64,000 nt of DNA, taken from positions 25,260 to 89,259 of the forward strand of contig PLYN01000014.1 of NCBI GenBank assembly GCA_003151815.1, in the 5' to 3' direction. Position 1 is the first letter of the stretch. Each line of letters opens with the position of its first letter. Source of the stretch: Bacteroidota bacterium. Its GTDB lineage: Bacteria > Bacteroidota > Bacteroidia > 2-12-FULL-35-15. A program made the position numbers and the translations under genes. The notes under the pieces are model-generated. The model searched no databases. It worked only from the letters and a program-made list of their open reading frames with translations, and had not been told where the DNA came from. Shown here in pieces: positions 23,349-40,212 of this stretch.

Positions 23349-25325
23349 ATGGACATTCATTTTTTATCTTTTGCTTTCTATAATCTTCTATTTCTAGTAT
23401 TTATTTACATAGCAGGACATTTTTTTCTCTCCATTTTCAAGATCGATATAAAAGAAAAACATGGAAGTGTGTTCATTAAACTATTGACCGGAACACTTTT
23501 TATCATTGGGATCTATTCAATCATAAAAACGGGGTTTTCTACTATACAAACAGGTTTTATTGTTTCGTCTTTACTTCTATTCTGGAATAGAGGATTTAAA
23601 AAATCATCAATTCCTGCAACAACCTCTTTATTGAAGAAAGATCAAATTATATCTGAATTGGGTATTATCATACAGTTATATGTTGTGGGCATATTGATAT
23701 TAACGCTGAACTACTTTTTCCTTCAAAGTGGCGGAAATGGAATCCCTCAAAATCCACACTGCGATATGAATTATTACAGCAATATCTCATCGTTTTTAAA
23801 TAATGTTGGTATTGAGACATTTGAAATGAATTACCTTGAACCCGGTAACGTTGGAAATTCACCTTATCATTATTTTGAGTTATGGACAACGGCTTTTTTT
23901 TCTTTCACCTTTCATTGCCCTTCTACACTAATAGTTAATCTCCTGATTACCCTACCCATATTAATAATGATCATAATTGCCGGTATATGGGCAATCATGG
24001 AACAATTTAAGATCAACCTATTTTACAAAATATTTTCATTGTTTTTGATCCTTATCAATGGAATGTATTTCAGTATTTATGTTCATATTCATTTGTTCTG
24101 GACGGCACAATTTCAATCCTCAATCTTGGATCAATCTATAGGATTAAAAACCTCTCCTATGTATATAGGTATCATCTTGTTTATTTTTCTGATAGGCAAA
24201 AATAAATATGTTGAATCGATCATGTGCCTCCTGTTCTTCCCATTCATTTCTGTTTATGCCTTTACCACATTTATCCCTGTTGCAATAGGTATGTCAATTT
24301 ATTTTTTCATTGCAAAAAAGATCGACAAAACTCAACTGATAAAATTGCTCATTTCAATTGCAGTTGTTTTAGGTTATTACAAGCTGTTTTATGCATTTAC
24401 TTCTAATTCCAAATTTTATGGCGACATGATTGATATAAATACGATTATTCCTCAATTATTTCAACTTCCTATTAAGTCCAGAATTATAAATATTGTAGAA
24501 AAATTAATTGAATCGATCCTCGTTTATATTCCATTTATTGCTCTGCTTCCTATCCTATACTTCAACTTAAAAAAAAACAAACCTAAATACACTGAATTTT
24601 TAGTGATGTCATTTTGGGCACTTATCTCATTTTACTTTTTTGCGATGGCCGCCTGGCATCTTTTCTTTTATATCTTTTCATCTAATCAACTTTTATATGT
24701 GGTGGCAGCTTCTGCAATGAATATCTTTTACTTCTTTGTCATTTATTTTATTCTCATTAATACCGAAAAAAATATATTTTCAGTTGTTATAATTATATAC
24801 GTTTCTATTATTGCTGTTGCGCTTTTCAGTACTCTTTATATTAATAATAAGAATTGCAGCAATTACTTTTCTAAAACATATAGTGATACCTATTTCCATA
24901 AAATCAATACTATAAAAGAACCCTTAAAAAAGGGAGCCATGTTGCTAACTCCTGACCAGATCTATAATAATTTCACCAACAATCCATTTTATTATGGCTC
25001 TTCTTTATACTTAAATTATATAAGACCGGGGTATCAATTAACCTCATTTTCAGTTTATTCTATTCCGGGAGGAGAAAAGGAAATTGACAAACTATGTCAG
25101 AATAATTTCTTAAGAGGTTCACCATTTATACAGTTTATAAATGAAAAGAAAAACAAAGGGGACTTTAGATCAATGGTTCAGAGCCAACTTGATTATATTG
25201 ATAAATACCATCTTACCTTTATTGTGATCTCAAAAGATGTAGAACCCGATTCACTTATAAGAACCAGGATGAAAGAGGAGATCAAGGATAGTCTTTCGGG
25301 AGAAAAGTTTTGGATATTGAAATGA
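23349..25325 (+). CDS. Large polytopic membrane protein, GT-C-like (paralogue 2)
   Basis: A 658-residue protein with about 12 membrane helices and a C-terminal soluble domain. It is clearly paralogous to the protein at 38242 along its full length. Shared blocks include NPHxD (near 138), FEMNYLEP, PYHYFELW, LLDQS/ILDQS with GLKTS, IPGGE-EID, and the identical end SGEKFWILK. No known catalytic family is recognised. The NPHCDMNYY loop placed after the early helices resembles the acidic first external loop of GT-C transferases. It is the second of two tandem members here; a 211-bp gap and a DPM1-type gene follow. Confidence 0.6.
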   Translation: MDIHFLSFAFYNLLFLVFIYIAGHFFLSIFKIDIKEKHGSVFIKLLTGTLFIIGIYSIIKTGFSTIQTGFIVSSLLLFWNRGFKKSSIPATTSLLKKDQIISELGIIIQLYVVGILILTLNYFFLQSGGNGIPQNPHCDMNYYSNISSFLNNVGIETFEMNYLEPGNVGNSPYHYFELWTTAFFSFTFHCPSTLIVNLLITLPILIMIIIAGIWAIMEQFKINLFYKIFSLFLILINGMYFSIYVHIHLFWTAQFQSSILDQSIGLKTSPMYIGIILFIFLIGKNKYVESIMCLLFFPFISVYAFTTFIPVAIGMSIYFFIAKKIDKTQLIKLLISIAVVLGYYKLFYAFTSNSKFYGDMIDINTIIPQLFQLPIKSRIINIVEKLIESILVYIPFIALLPILYFNLKKNKPKYTEFLVMSFWALISFYFFAMAAWHLFFYIFSSNQLLYVVAASAMNIFYFFVIYFILINTEKNIFSVVIIIYVSIIAVALFSTLYINNKNCSNYFSKTYSDTYFHKINTIKEPLKKGAMLLTPDQIYNNFTNNPFYYGSSLYLNYIRPGYQLTSFSVYSIPGGEKEIDKLCQNNFLRGSPFIQFINEKKNKGDFRSMVQSQLDYIDKYHLTFIVISKDVEPDSLIRTRMKEEIKDSLSGEKFWILK

Positions 25326-25536: not shown

Positions 25537-26454
25537 ATGAAGATATCCATTGTAAGTCCTGTATATAAGGCTGAAAAAATTATCCCTGTTTTAGTTGACC
25601 GGATTGAAAAAGCGGTTTCCAAAATAACGGATAACTACGAGATCATTTTAGTAGATGATTGTGGTCCGGACAGATCATGGGAAGTAATAGAAAATATCAC
25701 AGTCAATAACCCGAAAATTATTGGCATCAAGCTAAGTAGAAATTTCGGACAACATCACGCAATTACCGCAGGGTTAGATTATGCCAAAGGAGATTGGGTC
25801 GTAGTAATGGATTGTGACTTGCAAGACCAACCGGAAGAAATAGAAAAATTATATAAAAAAGCTATCGAAGGTTTTGATATTGTATTAGCAAGTAGATTGA
25901 TCAGAAAAGATAATCTGGTTAAGCGTTACCTTTCTTCCCTGTTTTATAAACTATTCGGCTACCTAACAGGAACCGACCAAGATCCAAGTATTGCCAATTT
26001 TGGCATATATAACAGAAAGGTGATCAACGCTGTTTGCAGTTTACGGGAATCGACACGATTTTTCCCTACAACCATTAATTGGGTAGGATTTAAAAATACA
26101 AAATTAGATGTCGATCATGACTCCAGATTTGAAGGCGAAACAAGTTATGACCTAAAAAAACTATTTCAGTTGTCATTTAATATCATCATAGCTTATTCAG
26201 ACAAACCAATACGCTTATTAATTAAATTTGGTTTACTTGTTTCTTTCTTTTCATTTGCTTTAGCGATCCGAACTTTTATTCAATGGTTAAATGGTGAAAT
26301 ACTCGTTTTGGGATATAGCAGTATCATGATCTCCATCTGGTTCTTATCAGGTGTGATCATTTCTACCCTTGGGATTGTGGGTCTATATGTTGGGAAAACA
26401 TTTGAAGGGATTAAAAACAGGCCTATTTATATAATAGACAAAATAACAGAGTAA
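25537..26454 (+). CDS. GT2 glycosyltransferase, DPM1/GtrB type (second)
   Basis: A 305-residue GT2 enzyme with VDDCGPDRSW (near 38-47), DCDLQDQPEEI (near 86-96) and two C-terminal helices (about 228-250 and 262-285), the polyprenyl-phosphate glycosyltransferase layout. It shares type but not close identity with the gene at 18339, so the two probably handle different sugars. Its stop codon overlaps the start of the next gene by one base (TAATG), indicating coupled translation with the WecD-like acetyltransferase and hence a possible Fuc4NAc link. Confidence 0.88.
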   Translation: MKISIVSPVYKAEKIIPVLVDRIEKAVSKITDNYEIILVDDCGPDRSWEVIENITVNNPKIIGIKLSRNFGQHHAITAGLDYAKGDWVVVMDCDLQDQPEEIEKLYKKAIEGFDIVLASRLIRKDNLVKRYLSSLFYKLFGYLTGTDQDPSIANFGIYNRKVINAVCSLRESTRFFPTTINWVGFKNTKLDVDHDSRFEGETSYDLKKLFQLSFNIIIAYSDKPIRLLIKFGLLVSFFSFALAIRTFIQWLNGEILVLGYSSIMISIWFLSGVIISTLGIVGLYVGKTFEGIKNRPIYIIDKITE

Positions 26455-27146
26455 TGATTGAAAAATTAATTTGGGATAGTTCTTTTTTTGGATATCCTGT
26501 TGGGCGAATCTATTTCGAATCCCCGAAAAATATTGATCTTAAATCTCTCCAGCTTCAATCGAAGGACTATAAGTTAGTTTACGTTTTCAGCAAGGAAGAA
26601 TTAATAGACGAACGATTTCAGTTAGTTGATGAAAAGGTAACCTTAACAAAAAATATATATAATTCTTCCTCTCAACTAATTTATAAATACTGCCAACCTT
26701 TTCATGATAGCGAAATTAATTTCGAGCAGTTGCTTGAGCTAGCCTATCTTAGTGGTCAATATTCCAGGTACAGATTAGACCCTAATTTTGTAAATGATGA
26801 ATTTAAGCGACTGTATAACGAATGGATCAACAAAAGTTTAAAAAAAGAAATAGCAATTGAAACAATTGTTGTAACAGATCAGGGTATCCTAAAAGGTTTT
26901 ATATCCTTGAATAAAAAAGATGAAAAAACATCAAAAATAGGATTAATTGCTGTTAACACTAATTTTCAAGGACAAGGAGTTGGAAGTCAATTATTGCAGG
27001 ATGTCGAATTGTTATCCTCTCATCTGGGTCTTAATACTATTCAAGTGGATACACAAATGCTCAATTCAGCCGGCATGAAACTTTATTTGAATAACGGGTA
27101 TACCATTTCGAACGTGGTTAAAATTTATCATTTATGGAACAAATAA
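26454..27146 (+). CDS. WecD/RffC-like dTDP-Fuc4N N-acetyltransferase (GNAT)
   Basis: A 230-residue GNAT protein with the acetyl-CoA loop FQGQGVGSQLLQ (near residue 170). From memory it lines up with E. coli WecD/RffC along its whole length: LIWDSSFFG against LTWENAFFG, YSRYRLDP against QSRFRAPW, YNEWI against YAQWI, and DTQMLNSAGMKLYL against ATQMGNTAALKRYI. WecD acetylates dTDP-Fuc4N to dTDP-Fuc4NAc, the product expected after the RffA-type enzyme at 20178. Presence of both in one locus supports the call. It overlaps the preceding GT2 gene by one base. Confidence 0.78.
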   Translation: MIEKLIWDSSFFGYPVGRIYFESPKNIDLKSLQLQSKDYKLVYVFSKEELIDERFQLVDEKVTLTKNIYNSSSQLIYKYCQPFHDSEINFEQLLELAYLSGQYSRYRLDPNFVNDEFKRLYNEWINKSLKKEIAIETIVVTDQGILKGFISLNKKDEKTSKIGLIAVNTNFQGQGVGSQLLQDVELLSSHLGLNTIQVDTQMLNSAGMKLYLNNGYTISNVVKIYHLWNK

Positions 27147-35287: not shown

Positions 35288-36088
35288 ATGAACGATATAA
35301 TCAAAGCTTTTATTAAAAAAATATTCCTTAAAAAAAAAGAACCTTCCAGCTTATCCGACAATGAAGTATATCCTTCCTTCTGTCTTAAAGCCAGCAAGGA
35401 TAAGGCTGTTTTTGCTAATTTCAGGAGAAACGAAATATACAATCAAATACTCGAACATGTTTCTGAACAAGAGGGTGCTGAATATATCAATGAAATTAAA
35501 AGGCAATCTATCAGGTTAAAAGATCTTAATTTATTCAAAGACAATGATCTTTATGGCAATCCGATCAAAAAAAATTATCCTGAAACAGGTGAAATTTCTC
35601 CTACAACATTAAGATATATTAAAGTTTTAACCGACCTGGAACTTGCTGTTGGAGACCTGAGCAATTTACGTATTGTAGAAATTGGAGTTGGTTATGGAGG
35701 CCAATGCAGAATAATTAATAGCGTTTATACTCCCGGCATTTATACATTGATTGATTTGAGTCCTGCTCTTGAACTTGCAAAAACATACCTGAAAAATTTC
35801 AACTTAAAGTCCAAACTTGATTTTAAAACCATGGAAGAGCTAGAGATCAGAGACTATGATCTTATAATAAGTAATTATGCGTTCTCTGAATTACCAAAAA
35901 ACATTCAAGATGTTTATTTAGAAAAAGTGATATTGAAATCAAAAAGAGGTTATATCACCTATAACGAAATAAATCCACCCCATTTTAATTCATATAATTC
36001 AGGAAAATTAATTCAACTAATTCCGAATTCAAAAATATCGAAAGAGGTTCCTTTGACTCATGAGAAGAACTGTATCATTACGTGGTAG
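35288..36088 (+). CDS. Putative sugar O-methyltransferase (NanM/TIGR04371-like)
   Basis: A 266-residue protein resembling the putative sugar O-methyltransferase family found in glycan loci. The motif-I-like segment is LRIVEIGVGYGGQCRII (near residue 134), followed by YTLIDLSPALELAK and DYDLIISNYAFSEL. The N-terminal region (YGNPIKKNYPETGEISPTTLRYIK) is characteristic of the family. It closes the packed operon 29718-36088. Downstream is a 430-bp gap and then the minus-strand GNAT-like cassette. Confidence 0.78.
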   Translation: MNDIIKAFIKKIFLKKKEPSSLSDNEVYPSFCLKASKDKAVFANFRRNEIYNQILEHVSEQEGAEYINEIKRQSIRLKDLNLFKDNDLYGNPIKKNYPETGEISPTTLRYIKVLTDLELAVGDLSNLRIVEIGVGYGGQCRIINSVYTPGIYTLIDLSPALELAKTYLKNFNLKSKLDFKTMEELEIRDYDLIISNYAFSELPKNIQDVYLEKVILKSKRGYITYNEINPPHFNSYNSGKLIQLIPNSKISKEVPLTHEKNCIITW

Positions 36089-36155: not shown

Positions 36156-36329
36156 ATGTATATTTCAGTCACAAACAAAATCAAATTTTATGAACATATT
36201 TTCCCATCATGTCCAAAATATGAACATAAAAAAACACGACCTTACAATGGAATAAAACCATACAATGAATTACCTTTACTACACCACTTAGTAAAAATTT
36301 TAGGCAATAACGCCTCTCGACGAAGGTAA
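36156..36329 (+). CDS. Possible small ORF, 57 aa, unrecognised
   Basis: ATG at 36156 opens a 57-codon frame (MYISVTNKIKFYEHIFPSCP... ending NNASRRR). The residue mix looks protein-like, but no signal, membrane segment or known motif is seen. It could be a short gene or the leftover of a longer gene broken by the rearrangement that placed the minus-strand cassette here. The remaining intergenic sequence from 36089 to 36519 shows no other supportable feature. Confidence 0.2.
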   Translation: MYISVTNKIKFYEHIFPSCPKYEHKKTRPYNGIKPYNELPLLHHLVKILGNNASRRR

Positions 36330-36519
36330 GTTCGGTGCGGTTTTACTTGCACTCCTTTTAATTAACCGATAAAATTTATAGAATGTAATGATGCGAATGG
36401 AAAATGTTTAGAAACAAAATTCACCGCTAAAAAAACATTTGCAATAGCTCCAAAATCCGCATCGAACTTAGGTAGTGTAGTAGCTTTGCTTTCTTTTTCA
36501 TAGCGGTTTACTTATCAAA

Positions 36520-36678
36520 TTACGCTAACGTCTTTTTCTTAGCTTTAGATAGCGGCATTTTTCTTCCTGTCGCTTTGTAATAAGCAATTATTTCGCTTAT
36601 TTTTTTTCTGTCTTCGATTGTTAACGGTGTAGAGTCAACTACAAAGTCTACACCTACTGGTTCTTTAATGTGTCCCAT
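36520..36678 (-). CDS. Small protein, 52 aa, partner of the GNAT-like gene
   Basis: ATG at 36678 opens a 52-codon frame (MGHIKEPVGVDFVVDSTPLT..., ending in a Lys-rich tail KAKKKTLA). From memory, short Bacteroidota proteins starting MGxxKEPxGVDFxV recur, which supports it being a real gene. The central part (EDRKKISEIIAYYKATGRK) is predicted helical and basic. It begins 12 bp after the stop of the GNAT-like gene on the same strand, so the pair is very likely an operon. Function is unknown; antitoxin-like or acetylation-target roles are possible. Confidence 0.65.
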   Translation of the reverse strand: MGHIKEPVGVDFVVDSTPLTIEDRKKISEIIAYYKATGRKMPLSKAKKKTLA

Positions 36679-36690
36679 TGTCTTTGTGAT

Positions 36691-37218
36691 TTAAGTTGGA
36701 TAATATTTTCTGATTAGTTTAAGTGCGTCATGAGGGAAGATTACCATTTTATGTCCACCTACATGAGTTGCTCCTAAGGTCTTTTCGTAATGTTCAACCA
36801 ATTTGGTCTTTGAGGTGAAGGAAATGAAACCTTGATAACCTTTGTCCCATGACGATTTACAGGTATATGCGAACAAGTTACCGGGCACTCCTTCATAAAG
36901 TTTGTGTTTCCCTAAATTGAATGGAGCACTTTCAATAAGATGTAAATAGAAATGGTCTTTGTAGTCACTAATGCTTAAAAGTCCTTGAACGATTTCGGGA
37001 TTATTCCGAATTGTCAGCTTAAAAACTTGTCTATCCTTGAGTTTGTACTCATTAGCCCAGTTGAAAAACCAACCATTTTTCATGATCGTGTTTTTTAAGT
37101 CAGCTTTGGTTACAGGGTGAACATCAGTAGGAAAACTGTCGCCTGAAATGACGTTTAGAATGCTGTTTGTCAGCTTGTCAATTTCAATTCCTAAATGATA
37201 TTTAGTTTGTTTTTCCAC
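36691..37218 (-). CDS. GNAT-like acetyltransferase of unknown substrate
   Basis: A 175-residue protein with a GNAT-like pattern. A beta strand (VQGLLSISDY) is followed by IESAPFN, then the acyl-CoA loop region GVPGNLFAYTCKSSWDKGY, the strand GFISFTSKT, and a helix KLVEHYEKTLGATHVGG. The usual Q/RxxGxG/A loop is degenerate (GVPGN). The start is GTG at 37218, since the next Met is at residue 46. A TACCTTTG -7 box ends four bases before it, so the mRNA may be leaderless. It is oriented against the glycan genes and pairs with the 52-residue gene downstream. Confidence 0.65.
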   Translation of the reverse strand: MEKQTKYHLGIEIDKLTNSILNVISGDSFPTDVHPVTKADLKNTIMKNGWFFNWANEYKLKDRQVFKLTIRNNPEIVQGLLSISDYKDHFYLHLIESAPFNLGKHKLYEGVPGNLFAYTCKSSWDKGYQGFISFTSKTKLVEHYEKTLGATHVGGHKMVIFPHDALKLIRKYYPT

Positions 37219-37222
37219 ATAT

Positions 37223-37230
37223 CAAAGGTA
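37223..37230 (-). promoter_or_regulatory. Promoter -7 element for the GNAT-like cassette
   Basis: TACCTTTG (minus strand) fits TAnnTTTG and ends four bases before the GTG at 37218. A T-rich segment (GTTTC at 37250-37246) stands in the -33 position but lacks a TTG. It implies an independent promoter for the minus-strand cassette and a very short or absent leader. Confidence 0.45.
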
Positions 37231-37382
37231 CAAAAAATGTCTTTTGAAACCTATAAAAAAAGTGATAACTTCGGCACCGAAAGTTTGTTTTTAAAAGGTC
37301 GAATCTTTCTCTTAGCATTGCTACTAACTATATGTAATATACTGTTAAACTAAAATTGTAAATTGTTATTCAATTGAACTAT

Positions 37383-38241: not shown

Positions 38242-40212
38242 ATGGAATATCCATTGATCTTATTTGGGACTTATCTTATTCTTTTTATTTTTCTGCTATT
38301 TACTGTAGGGCATATTTCTTTTTCTATCCTTAATCTCCAAATTACAGGAGAGTACTCAAAAGTATTTTCAAAATTAGTGTCCGGTATATTTATTATCATC
38401 TTTTTCTATTCGATCTACAAAACCAATTTTCACACGATCACTTCAGGATTTATCATTGCCGGCTTATTATTATGGTGGAACAGAGGATTTAGACTGCCTT
38501 CAATGAAAAAAGCGTATCAGATATTTACTGATAATGAAATTAAAGATCAACTATTCATTTTACTTCAACTTTGCATTGTTGCACTATTAATACTTGCCTG
38601 GAATCATCATTTTATGTTTTCAGGAAATGTAACAATAGTGGAAAACCCTCATCCTGATCTAAGTTTTTATGCACGGGTTTCAAGCTTTTTAAATGGCGCA
38701 GGTAAAGAAACATTCGAAATGAATTATCTTGAACCACAGACATTAGGAGCCACACCTTATCACTATTTTGAATTATGGGGCAATGCTTTTGTGTCGTTTC
38801 TCTTTCATAACCCATCAACACTGGCAACCATCCAACTAATATCTATACCTGCATTTCTTACACTCGTTATTTCAGGAGTCTGGGCGCTAATGGAACAAGT
38901 TAAAATTAACCTGTTTTATAAACTCCTGTCAATTGCTCTTTTATTCATAACAGGCTTTTATTTCCCGGTTTATGATAGTATACATTTATATTGGACATCT
39001 TATTTTCAGGTAAATCTTTTAGATCAAAGTACAGGCTTAAAGACATCAATACTTTATATTGCCATACTGATGTTTACTTTACTTTTAGTTAAAAAAAAAT
39101 ATCAGGAAGCATTGGTCTGTCTTTTATTTTTCCCTTTCGCCTCCGTATACGGAATGTTTACGTTTATTCCATCTTGCGTAATTCTATCAATTTATTTTTT
39201 TTCTATAAAAAAAATAAATTTCGCCTCAGCCATTAAAATAATCATCGGAGCAATGATCGCTACAATTTATTTTCAGCTATTCTACAAATTAAATTCGGAT
39301 AAGGAATTCTATTCAAATATGGTTGATATACTTACGGTCATCCATCAACTTTTAGAATTAAGTGTGAGATCAAGAATTATTATTGCTACCGAAAAATTTA
39401 TTGAACTCTTGATTCTATATAGCCCACTAATTTTATTATTCCCATTATTGATAAATCATTTGAAGTCTTTAAATAACGAATCGAAAGCGAATTTGACCGA
39501 TATATTTATTGGGTTTTGCTGTTTTATTTTAACATCGTTAATTTCTTGGAACTTTTTTTATTTTGTATTTGGCTCGTCAGAATTTTTTTACACAATAACC
39601 AACACTGTAATGAACGTATCTGTTTTCATGCTGATCTACTTTTTTTTTATCTTTAATAAAAACCTTTTAGTTCGTGGCTGCTTGGTTTTATATATATCCA
39701 TATTTATTTTGTTTCAAGTCAAAAAAATTAATGATGTTAATAATTCATTCAGTAATACGTTTCGAGAAAAACACAGCATTGAATATGTCAATGCAATAGA
39801 TACATTAAATATCGGAAAACAAGGAGCCTGCCTATTATCGCAGGAAGAAGCGTTAACCATTCATGTGAATCCTTTTTATTACCAAAATGCGCCATATTTT
39901 CATTATTCCAAGCCGGATTGTGAAGTAACAAATATTTCTATTTATGACATTCCGGGTGGGGAAGCAGAAATAGATAAACATGCGAAAATAACCTTTATAC
40001 ATGGCTCACCGTTTTTCAGATTTATACAATCGCAAAAAAAAACGGGTCTATTTGAGTCTATTAAAAAAAGTCAAATACAGTTCATTGAATATTACAACAT
40101 TCGTTTTTTGATTATATCGAAGAATTTCGAACCCGATAGTTTATTGAAAATAAGATTAAAGAAGGAAATAAAGGATGAGAGATCCGGGGAAAAATTTTGG
40201 ATCTTAAAATAA
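38242..40212 (+). CDS. Large polytopic membrane protein, GT-C-like (paralogue 3)
   Basis: A 656-residue protein with about 12 membrane helices, a full-length paralogue of the protein at 23349. Matches include the N-terminal GHISFSIL/GHFFLSIF stretch, LLWWNRGF, NPHPDLSFYARVSSFL, FEMNYLEP, PYHYFELWGNAF, IPGGEAEID, EPDSLL and the identical C-terminus SGEKFWILK. The conserved external-loop Asp and aromatic residues suggest a GT-C-type active site. The copies are separated by 13 kb with different neighbours, so the duplication is not recent tandem. Its sugar is unknown. Confidence 0.6.
   Translation: MEYPLILFGTYLILFIFLLFTVGHISFSILNLQITGEYSKVFSKLVSGIFIIIFFYSIYKTNFHTITSGFIIAGLLLWWNRGFRLPSMKKAYQIFTDNEIKDQLFILLQLCIVALLILAWNHHFMFSGNVTIVENPHPDLSFYARVSSFLNGAGKETFEMNYLEPQTLGATPYHYFELWGNAFVSFLFHNPSTLATIQLISIPAFLTLVISGVWALMEQVKINLFYKLLSIALLFITGFYFPVYDSIHLYWTSYFQVNLLDQSTGLKTSILYIAILMFTLLLVKKKYQEALVCLLFFPFASVYGMFTFIPSCVILSIYFFSIKKINFASAIKIIIGAMIATIYFQLFYKLNSDKEFYSNMVDILTVIHQLLELSVRSRIIIATEKFIELLILYSPLILLFPLLINHLKSLNNESKANLTDIFIGFCCFILTSLISWNFFYFVFGSSEFFYTITNTVMNVSVFMLIYFFFIFNKNLLVRGCLVLYISIFILFQVKKINDVNNSFSNTFREKHSIEYVNAIDTLNIGKQGACLLSQEEALTIHVNPFYYQNAPYFHYSKPDCEVTNISIYDIPGGEAEIDKHAKITFIHGSPFFRFIQSQKKTGLFESIKKSQIQFIEYYNIRFLIISKNFEPDSLLKIRLKKEIKDERSGEKFWILK

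What the first reader, a model, noticed from the sequence alone, without database searches (positions are those of the whole stretch)
36520..37230. Two-gene GNAT-like / 52-aa cassette inserted antisense in the glycan locus
Seen: a 175-residue GNAT-like protein (GTG start) and a 52-residue basic protein (MGHIKEPVGVDFVV...) lie 12 bp apart on the minus strand, with their own -7 box, surrounded by gene-poor sequence and splitting a plus-strand glycan operon. Established: GNAT enzymes are the toxin part of several toxin-antitoxin pairs (e.g. TacT-type), but their antitoxins normally precede the toxin and carry DNA-binding domains. Inference: this may be a different, mobile two-component module (toxin-antitoxin, defence or acetylation of a small partner).
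Basis: partly seen in the sequence, partly recalled or inferred. Interest (0 to 1): 0.62.

Follow-up and report, generated by a model that had tools for sequence, protein, structure and literature searches.

The report
Mobile GNAT toxin and small antitoxin
Two small adjacent genes sitting backwards in a sugar-coat gene cluster are one copy of a widespread, unannotated, horizontally moving gene pair that most likely encodes an acetyltransferase toxin and its tiny antidote, with a kind of antidote not described before for this toxin class.

Summary
In detail: a 175-aa GTG-started ORF (37218-36691) and a 52-aa ORF (36678-36520), both minus strand, 12 bp apart, with a TAnnTTTG -7 box 4 nt before the start. 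They sit in a 1.3-kb gap between plus-strand glycan genes. No profile library names either protein. Of 107 loci with a 175-aa relative, 105 carry a 35-82-aa partner immediately downstream. Both genes are under purifying selection. AlphaFold (pLDDT 92) plus Foldseek gives a GNAT fold; the toxins AtaT, TacT3 and KacT are among the best matches. Toxin evidence: the same domain forms the C-terminus of two phage MuF proteins, each with a small ORF after it; distant relatives pair with HTH proteins; and in 396 genomes, 8 of 29 small genes lack a full GNAT gene, but no intact GNAT gene lacks its partner. I infer a toxin-antitoxin module with toxin first and a non-DNA-binding antitoxin. In several genomes it has integron-cassette format, once as first cassette beside an integron integrase; elsewhere it lies between long direct repeats. 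The window copy has neither signature. Toxicity, target and neutralisation are inferred, not shown. New variant of a known kind.

The parts
36691..37218 (-). Predicted GNAT-fold toxin, 175 aa, GTG start; Y144 invariant in 76 aligned relatives
   Evidence: ORF; alignment A2; AlphaFold pLDDT 92.3, pTM 0.88; Foldseek matches to GNATs including AtaT, TacT3, KacT
36520..36678 (-). Predicted small antitoxin/immunity protein, 52 aa: conserved MGxIKEPxGVDFxVxxxPLTxxExxxISExIxxYK followed by a Lys-rich tail
   Evidence: ORF; conserved partner in 105 of 107 loci; alignment A4; selection
37223..37230 (-). Bacteroidota-type -7 promoter box TACCTTTG, 4 nt before the GTG start, predicting a leaderless mRNA
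   Evidence: sequence; conserved position in relatives, 45 of 84 exact against 11 of 339 background ORFs

Best explanation
The pair is a horizontally mobile type II-like toxin-antitoxin module. Gene 1 encodes a GNAT-fold acetyltransferase toxin, read from its own promoter, probably as a leaderless mRNA. Gene 2, translated from the same transcript, encodes a small antitoxin that binds and blocks the toxin: a conserved N-terminal strand-like segment plus a helix, with a Lys-rich tail and no recognised DNA-binding domain. If the module is lost, the antitoxin would decay first and the freed toxin would stop growth, most likely by acetylating an aminoacyl-tRNA or another part of the translation machinery. 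That would keep the module, and whatever flanks it, in the genome. Shown here: the operon, its conservation and selection, the GNAT fold (model), the invariant Tyr, the phage MuF fusions, the HTH partners of distant relatives, the one-sided decay, and the cassette and repeat contexts of some copies. Inferred: toxicity, target, binding, antitoxin lability and addiction.
For: Partner in 105 of 107 loci, the other two being a contig end and a pseudogene. Confident GNAT model; TM about 0.54-0.55 to AtaT, TacT3 and KacT, near the top among PDB matches. Y144, invariant in 76 sequences, sits in the helix after the fifth strand of the GNAT core, where the catalytic Tyr of GNAT toxins lies (position from general knowledge; AtaT was crystallised as Y144F). 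The same domain is the C-terminus of two Phage_Mu_F proteins (L139 and Fusobacterium phage phiPaco), each followed by a 58-72-aa ORF; two phage minor capsid proteins match at TM 0.86-0.87. In MuF polymorphic toxins the C-terminal domain is the toxin and a small ORF after it the presumed immunity gene (PMC5576092). Distant relatives, one in the window's own genome, are followed by HTH proteins of an antitoxin-like kind. In 396 genomes, 29 small genes: 21 beside a full GNAT gene, 4 beside a fragment, 4 without; no intact GNAT gene without a partner. L034, L037 and L038 have lost most of gene 1 but keep gene 2.
Against: No toxicity, binding or enzymatic data. The canonical acetyl-CoA loop (Q/R)xxGx(G/A) is only partly recognisable (K106xYxGVxGN), and acetyl-CoA binding was not tested. 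The single-chain read-through model of both proteins gives a confident antitoxin helix (residues 201-217) but low confidence elsewhere, so no interface is supported. The small partner shows no convincing homology to the HTH partners of distant relatives (hhalign probability 9%). Gene order is the reverse of DUF1778-GNAT modules.
Confidence: 0.78

Rival explanations
1. Enzyme-substrate pair: the GNAT protein acetylates the Lys-rich tail of the small protein, a DNA- or RNA-binding peptide, and the pair is a benign regulatory module rather than a toxin and its antidote.
For: The small protein has a conserved N-terminal half and a variable, Lys-rich tail. The near-perfect pairing fits an enzyme and its dedicated substrate as well as a toxin and antitoxin.
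Against: Distant relatives pair with unrelated small ORFs or with HTH proteins that lack such a tail, and the phage fusions fit a toxin. The small gene survives without the enzyme, which a pure substrate would have no reason to do.
Confidence: 0.1
2. An anti-phage defence unit: the toxin is released when phage infection disturbs the antitoxin, causing abortive infection. This is the same module with a different main benefit, so it overlaps with the best explanation.
For: Many toxin-antitoxin modules act this way (established knowledge). Relatives occur in phage contigs and on plasmids. L157 has a small-gene homologue behind an AAA_15 ATPase gene and a 166-aa nuclease-like ORF.
Against: No PADLOC model matches. 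The copies read sit alone between host genes rather than clustered with defence genes. It does not exclude the best explanation.
Confidence: 0.25
3. An ordinary metabolic or glycan-modifying acetyltransferase with a small accessory protein, serving the surrounding glycan cluster.
For: It lies inside a glycan locus that has another GNAT-like gene at 26454-27146. Many GNATs are metabolic.
Against: It is antisense to the cluster with its own promoter, relatives sit in unrelated surroundings such as beside an integron integrase or the ends of unrelated housekeeping genes, and the domain is fused to phage head proteins.
Confidence: 0.04

Closest known systems
DUF1778-GNAT type II toxin-antitoxin modules (TacAT, AtaRT, KacAT)
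   Same: Two-gene module with a GNAT-fold protein of about 160-175 aa and a conserved Tyr; TacT3, AtaT and KacT are among the best solved-structure matches
   Different: Toxin gene first, antitoxin second; the antitoxin is a 46-82-aa protein without a ribbon-helix-helix or any other recognised domain; sequence similarity to these toxins is not detectable by profile search of PDB chains
DUF4065-GNAT (VcaA-VcaT), described in PMC9177977
   Same: Shows that a GNAT toxin can exchange its antitoxin for an unrelated one
   Different: The partner there is DUF4065; here it is a short Lys-rich protein matching no Pfam family above cut-off
MuF polymorphic toxins of temperate phages (PMC5576092)
   Same: Two phage relatives have the MuF domain upstream, this GNAT domain at the C-terminus and a small ORF immediately after
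   Different: The window gene is a stand-alone toxin without a delivery domain; the words GNAT and acetyltransferase do not occur in that paper's main text
Toxin-antitoxin cassettes of chromosomal integrons, such as the 19 in Vibrio cholerae (PMC11023631)
   Same: Carry their own promoter and sit between recombination sites; several relatives here have cassette format and one is next to an integron integrase
   Different: Most copies are not in recognisable integron arrays; the window copy shows no cassette signature

Membership tests
GNAT superfamily | GNAT fold | tested here: met
   AlphaFold pLDDT 92.3; the PDB matches with E up to 0.001 are acetyl/acyltransferases of GNAT type; one of 76 members also matches Pfam Acetyltransf_10 at 9.4e-5
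GNAT superfamily | Acetyl-CoA loop (Q/R)xxGx(G/A) | tested here: inconclusive
   Conserved KxYxGVxGN at 106-114 resembles but does not match the motif; no ligand modelling was possible
GNAT-type toxin | Conserved catalytic Tyr in the helix after strand 5 | tested here: met
   Y144 invariant in 76 sequences, in helix 138-148; equivalence to the toxin Tyr inferred from position only
Type II toxin-antitoxin module | Two-gene operon, conserved as a pair | tested here: met
   105 of 107 loci
Type II toxin-antitoxin module | Toxin gene not kept without its antitoxin gene | tested here: met
   0 intact GNAT genes without partner; 8 of 29 small genes without a full GNAT gene
Type II toxin-antitoxin module | Toxin stops growth and antitoxin neutralises it by binding | not testable with these tools
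   Needs expression and binding experiments; the read-through model gave no resolved interface
DUF1778-GNAT modules | RHH (DUF1778) antitoxin gene | tested here: not met
   No Pfam family matches the 52-aa protein above cut-off
MuF polymorphic toxins | Phage_Mu_F domain upstream of the toxin domain in the same protein | tested here: not met
   Absent from the window protein; present in relatives L139 and L140
Integron gene cassette | R'' box after the genes complementary to the cassette start, and an attC hairpin ending at G|TTR | tested here: not met
   Window copy 7 of 14 matches, inside the null distribution; met in 11 of 101 relatives at 12 or more of 14 against 11 of 3000 mismatched pairs; hairpins

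The most novel reading that the evidence does not exclude
The small Lys-rich protein is a sacrificial decoy antitoxin: it occupies the GNAT active site and is itself acetylated on its Lys tail, so protection depends on turnover of an acceptor rather than on tight binding alone, unlike known GNAT antitoxins.
Probability: 0.08. Interest if true: 0.78.

Novelty: new variant of a known kind. Interest (0 to 1): 0.56.

Why it matters
A family with at least 484 detected relatives, with no name in Pfam, NCBIfam, PADLOC or PHROGs for the window copy, would be a large toxin-antitoxin class in Bacteroidota with a small antitoxin that has no known DNA-binding domain. It ties together three settings usually studied apart: stand-alone toxin-antitoxin pairs, integron cassettes in Bacteroidota, and phage-borne MuF toxins that share one GNAT domain. 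It also supplies a short, clean test construct: about 700 bp including the promoter.

Tried and rejected
Pfam, NCBIfam, PADLOC and PHROGs for both proteins: nothing significant. Rfam on the locus: only chance hits. PDB sequence search with the family profile: nothing. Homology between the 52-aa protein and the N-terminus of the HTH antitoxins of distant relatives: hhalign probability 9%, not accepted. attC site for the window copy: the inverted repeat 36327-36344 / 36453-36470 is not accompanied by the expected complementary cassette start, and the single-strand fold is not better than shuffles (z -0.20), so rejected. Toxin-antitoxin interface from a read-through single chain: uninformative. 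Integron integrase in the window's own genome: no match over the family cut-off, but the genome is 76.6% complete. Empty site in the same genus: flanking DNA too diverged to find. The B. fragilis 'cfiA element' GNAT plus Lys-rich peptide (PMC9138018): described there as closest to elongator protein 3 and AtaT-type toxins; no sequence comparison was made here, so no link is claimed.

Full report
Observation. The two ORFs are present as described: 175 aa from GTG at 37218 to 36691 and 52 aa from 36678 to 36520, both on the minus strand, 12 bp apart. They lie in a gap of about 1.3 kb between a methyltransferase-like gene ending at 36088 and a fucosyltransferase-like gene starting at 37374, inside a mainly plus-strand glycan cluster (gene names by reading, not by profile search). 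A -7 box TACCTTTG lies 4 nt before the GTG.

Real genes. A search of 396 genomes of the phylum found relatives of the 175-aa protein in 31. A scan of one genome per bacterial and archaeal species confirmed 484 relatives and kept 80 loci, in records labelled Chitinophagaceae, Sphingobacteriales, Flavobacteriales, Cytophagales, Bacteroidales and others, with up to 86% protein identity to the window across these groups. In 105 of 107 loci with a good relative, a 35-82-aa partner starts -11 to +15 bp from the first stop codon; the two exceptions are a contig end and a pseudogene. DNA similarity between copies starts near the -7 box and stops near the end of gene 2. In unsaturated pairs gene 1 has dN/dS of 0.04-0.14, and gene 2 also has dN well below dS. 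An exact TAnnTTTG lies within 20 nt of the start in 45 of 84 relatives, 41 of them at 3-4 nt, against 11 of 339 other ORFs. A box at that distance places the expected transcription start at the start codon, so I infer a leaderless mRNA.

What the proteins are. No library names either protein. With 76 relatives as alignment, AlphaFold gives a confident model (pLDDT 92.3, pTM 0.88). Foldseek against the PDB gives 43 matches at E up to 0.001, acetyl/acyltransferases of GNAT type, and AtaT, TacT3 and KacT give TM about 0.54-0.55, near the top of the list. F52, G79, N101, L115 and Y144 are invariant. The 52-aa protein has a conserved first 36 residues and a variable Lys-rich tail.

Why a toxin. First, the closest phage structures are minor capsid proteins (TM 0.86-0.87). 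Two phage relatives, L139 and Fusobacterium phage phiPaco, carry a Pfam Phage_Mu_F domain followed by this GNAT domain at the C-terminus, with a 58-72-aa ORF immediately downstream. This is the layout of MuF polymorphic toxins (PMC5576092), whose main text mentions no GNAT domain. Second, distant relatives (L040-L051) are followed by HTH-bearing proteins of 156-195 aa instead, a usual antitoxin type; one such pair lies in the window's own genome. Plasmid relatives in Paenibacillus and Treponema are followed by other small ORFs. So the GNAT domain is constant while its small neighbour changes, as expected for toxins that exchange antidotes. Third, gene loss is one-sided: of 29 small genes in 396 genomes, 21 stand beside a full GNAT gene, 4 beside a fragment and 4 without one, while no intact GNAT gene lacks its partner. 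L034, L037 and L038 keep gene 2 after loss of most of gene 1. These lines are circumstantial; nobody has shown toxicity.

How it moves. In 11 of 101 loci the sequence upstream of the promoter begins G|TTRnnn and is complementary (12 or more of 14) to a box just after gene 2, the format of an integron gene cassette; mismatched pairs reach this in 11 of 3000. Hairpin attC-like sites ending in CG|TTR follow in L061, L068, L094, L115, L121, L122 and L133, and in L014, which had scored 10 of 14. Single hairpin scores are not all above the null maximum, so the case rests on the complementary boxes and on genome G235, where the module is 250 bp from a full integron integrase gene (TIGR02249, E 1.6e-129), divergent from it, as the first cassette. 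Separately, 33 of 89 modules lie between direct repeats, mostly 60-490 bp, made of local sequence, against 7 of 313 control intervals in the same loci. Where the repeat is the end of a long gene, some copy pairs differ mainly at third codon positions (L130 9/0/35, L083 2/1/8, L009 1/0/7 for positions 1/2/3). That suggests the second copy came in from another genome with the module rather than from a decaying local duplication; other pairs (L060, L081) do not show it, and some repeats are insertion sequences or attC sites. The window copy shows neither a cassette signature nor flanking repeats.

Judgement. I commit to a mobile toxin-antitoxin module with toxin first and a new small antitoxin (0.78). 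The target (aminoacyl-tRNA or other translation component) is by analogy with GNAT toxins (PMC9177977) and much less certain, about 0.45. That paper also notes TA-like GNAT loci outside its main clade whose short neighbours lack DNA-binding domains, so loci of this general kind have been glimpsed; the small-protein family, its pairing statistics, the MuF fusions and the integron link are, to my knowledge, new.

Noticed in passing
L130, L083, L009, L131, L066 and others: Modules flanked by long direct repeats of the local host gene end; in some, the two copies differ almost only at third codon positions, hinting at import of a donor gene end with the module
   Followed up: partly
L157:1480-2599: A small-protein homologue directly behind an AAA_15 ATPase gene and a 166-aa nuclease-like ORF, with no GNAT gene: possible use of the same antitoxin type by another system
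   Followed up: partly
L172:1495-1674 (window's own genome, contig C13): A 34-codon remnant resembling the small protein behind a DUF4160/HTH gene pair
   Followed up: partly
L037, downstream of 1438-1614: A second small-protein gene of the other subtype follows the first within about 150 bp, next to a toxin remnant
   Followed up: no
L203:659-4954: The module of a close relative (81% identity) lies between two near-identical transposase genes
   Followed up: no
window 36327-36344 and 36453-36470: An 18-nt inverted repeat (89% complementary, 108 nt apart) downstream of the pair; not a recognisable attC site
   Followed up: yes
window 23349-25325 and 38242-40212: Two paralogous membrane proteins of 658 and 656 aa in the same glycan cluster
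   Followed up: no
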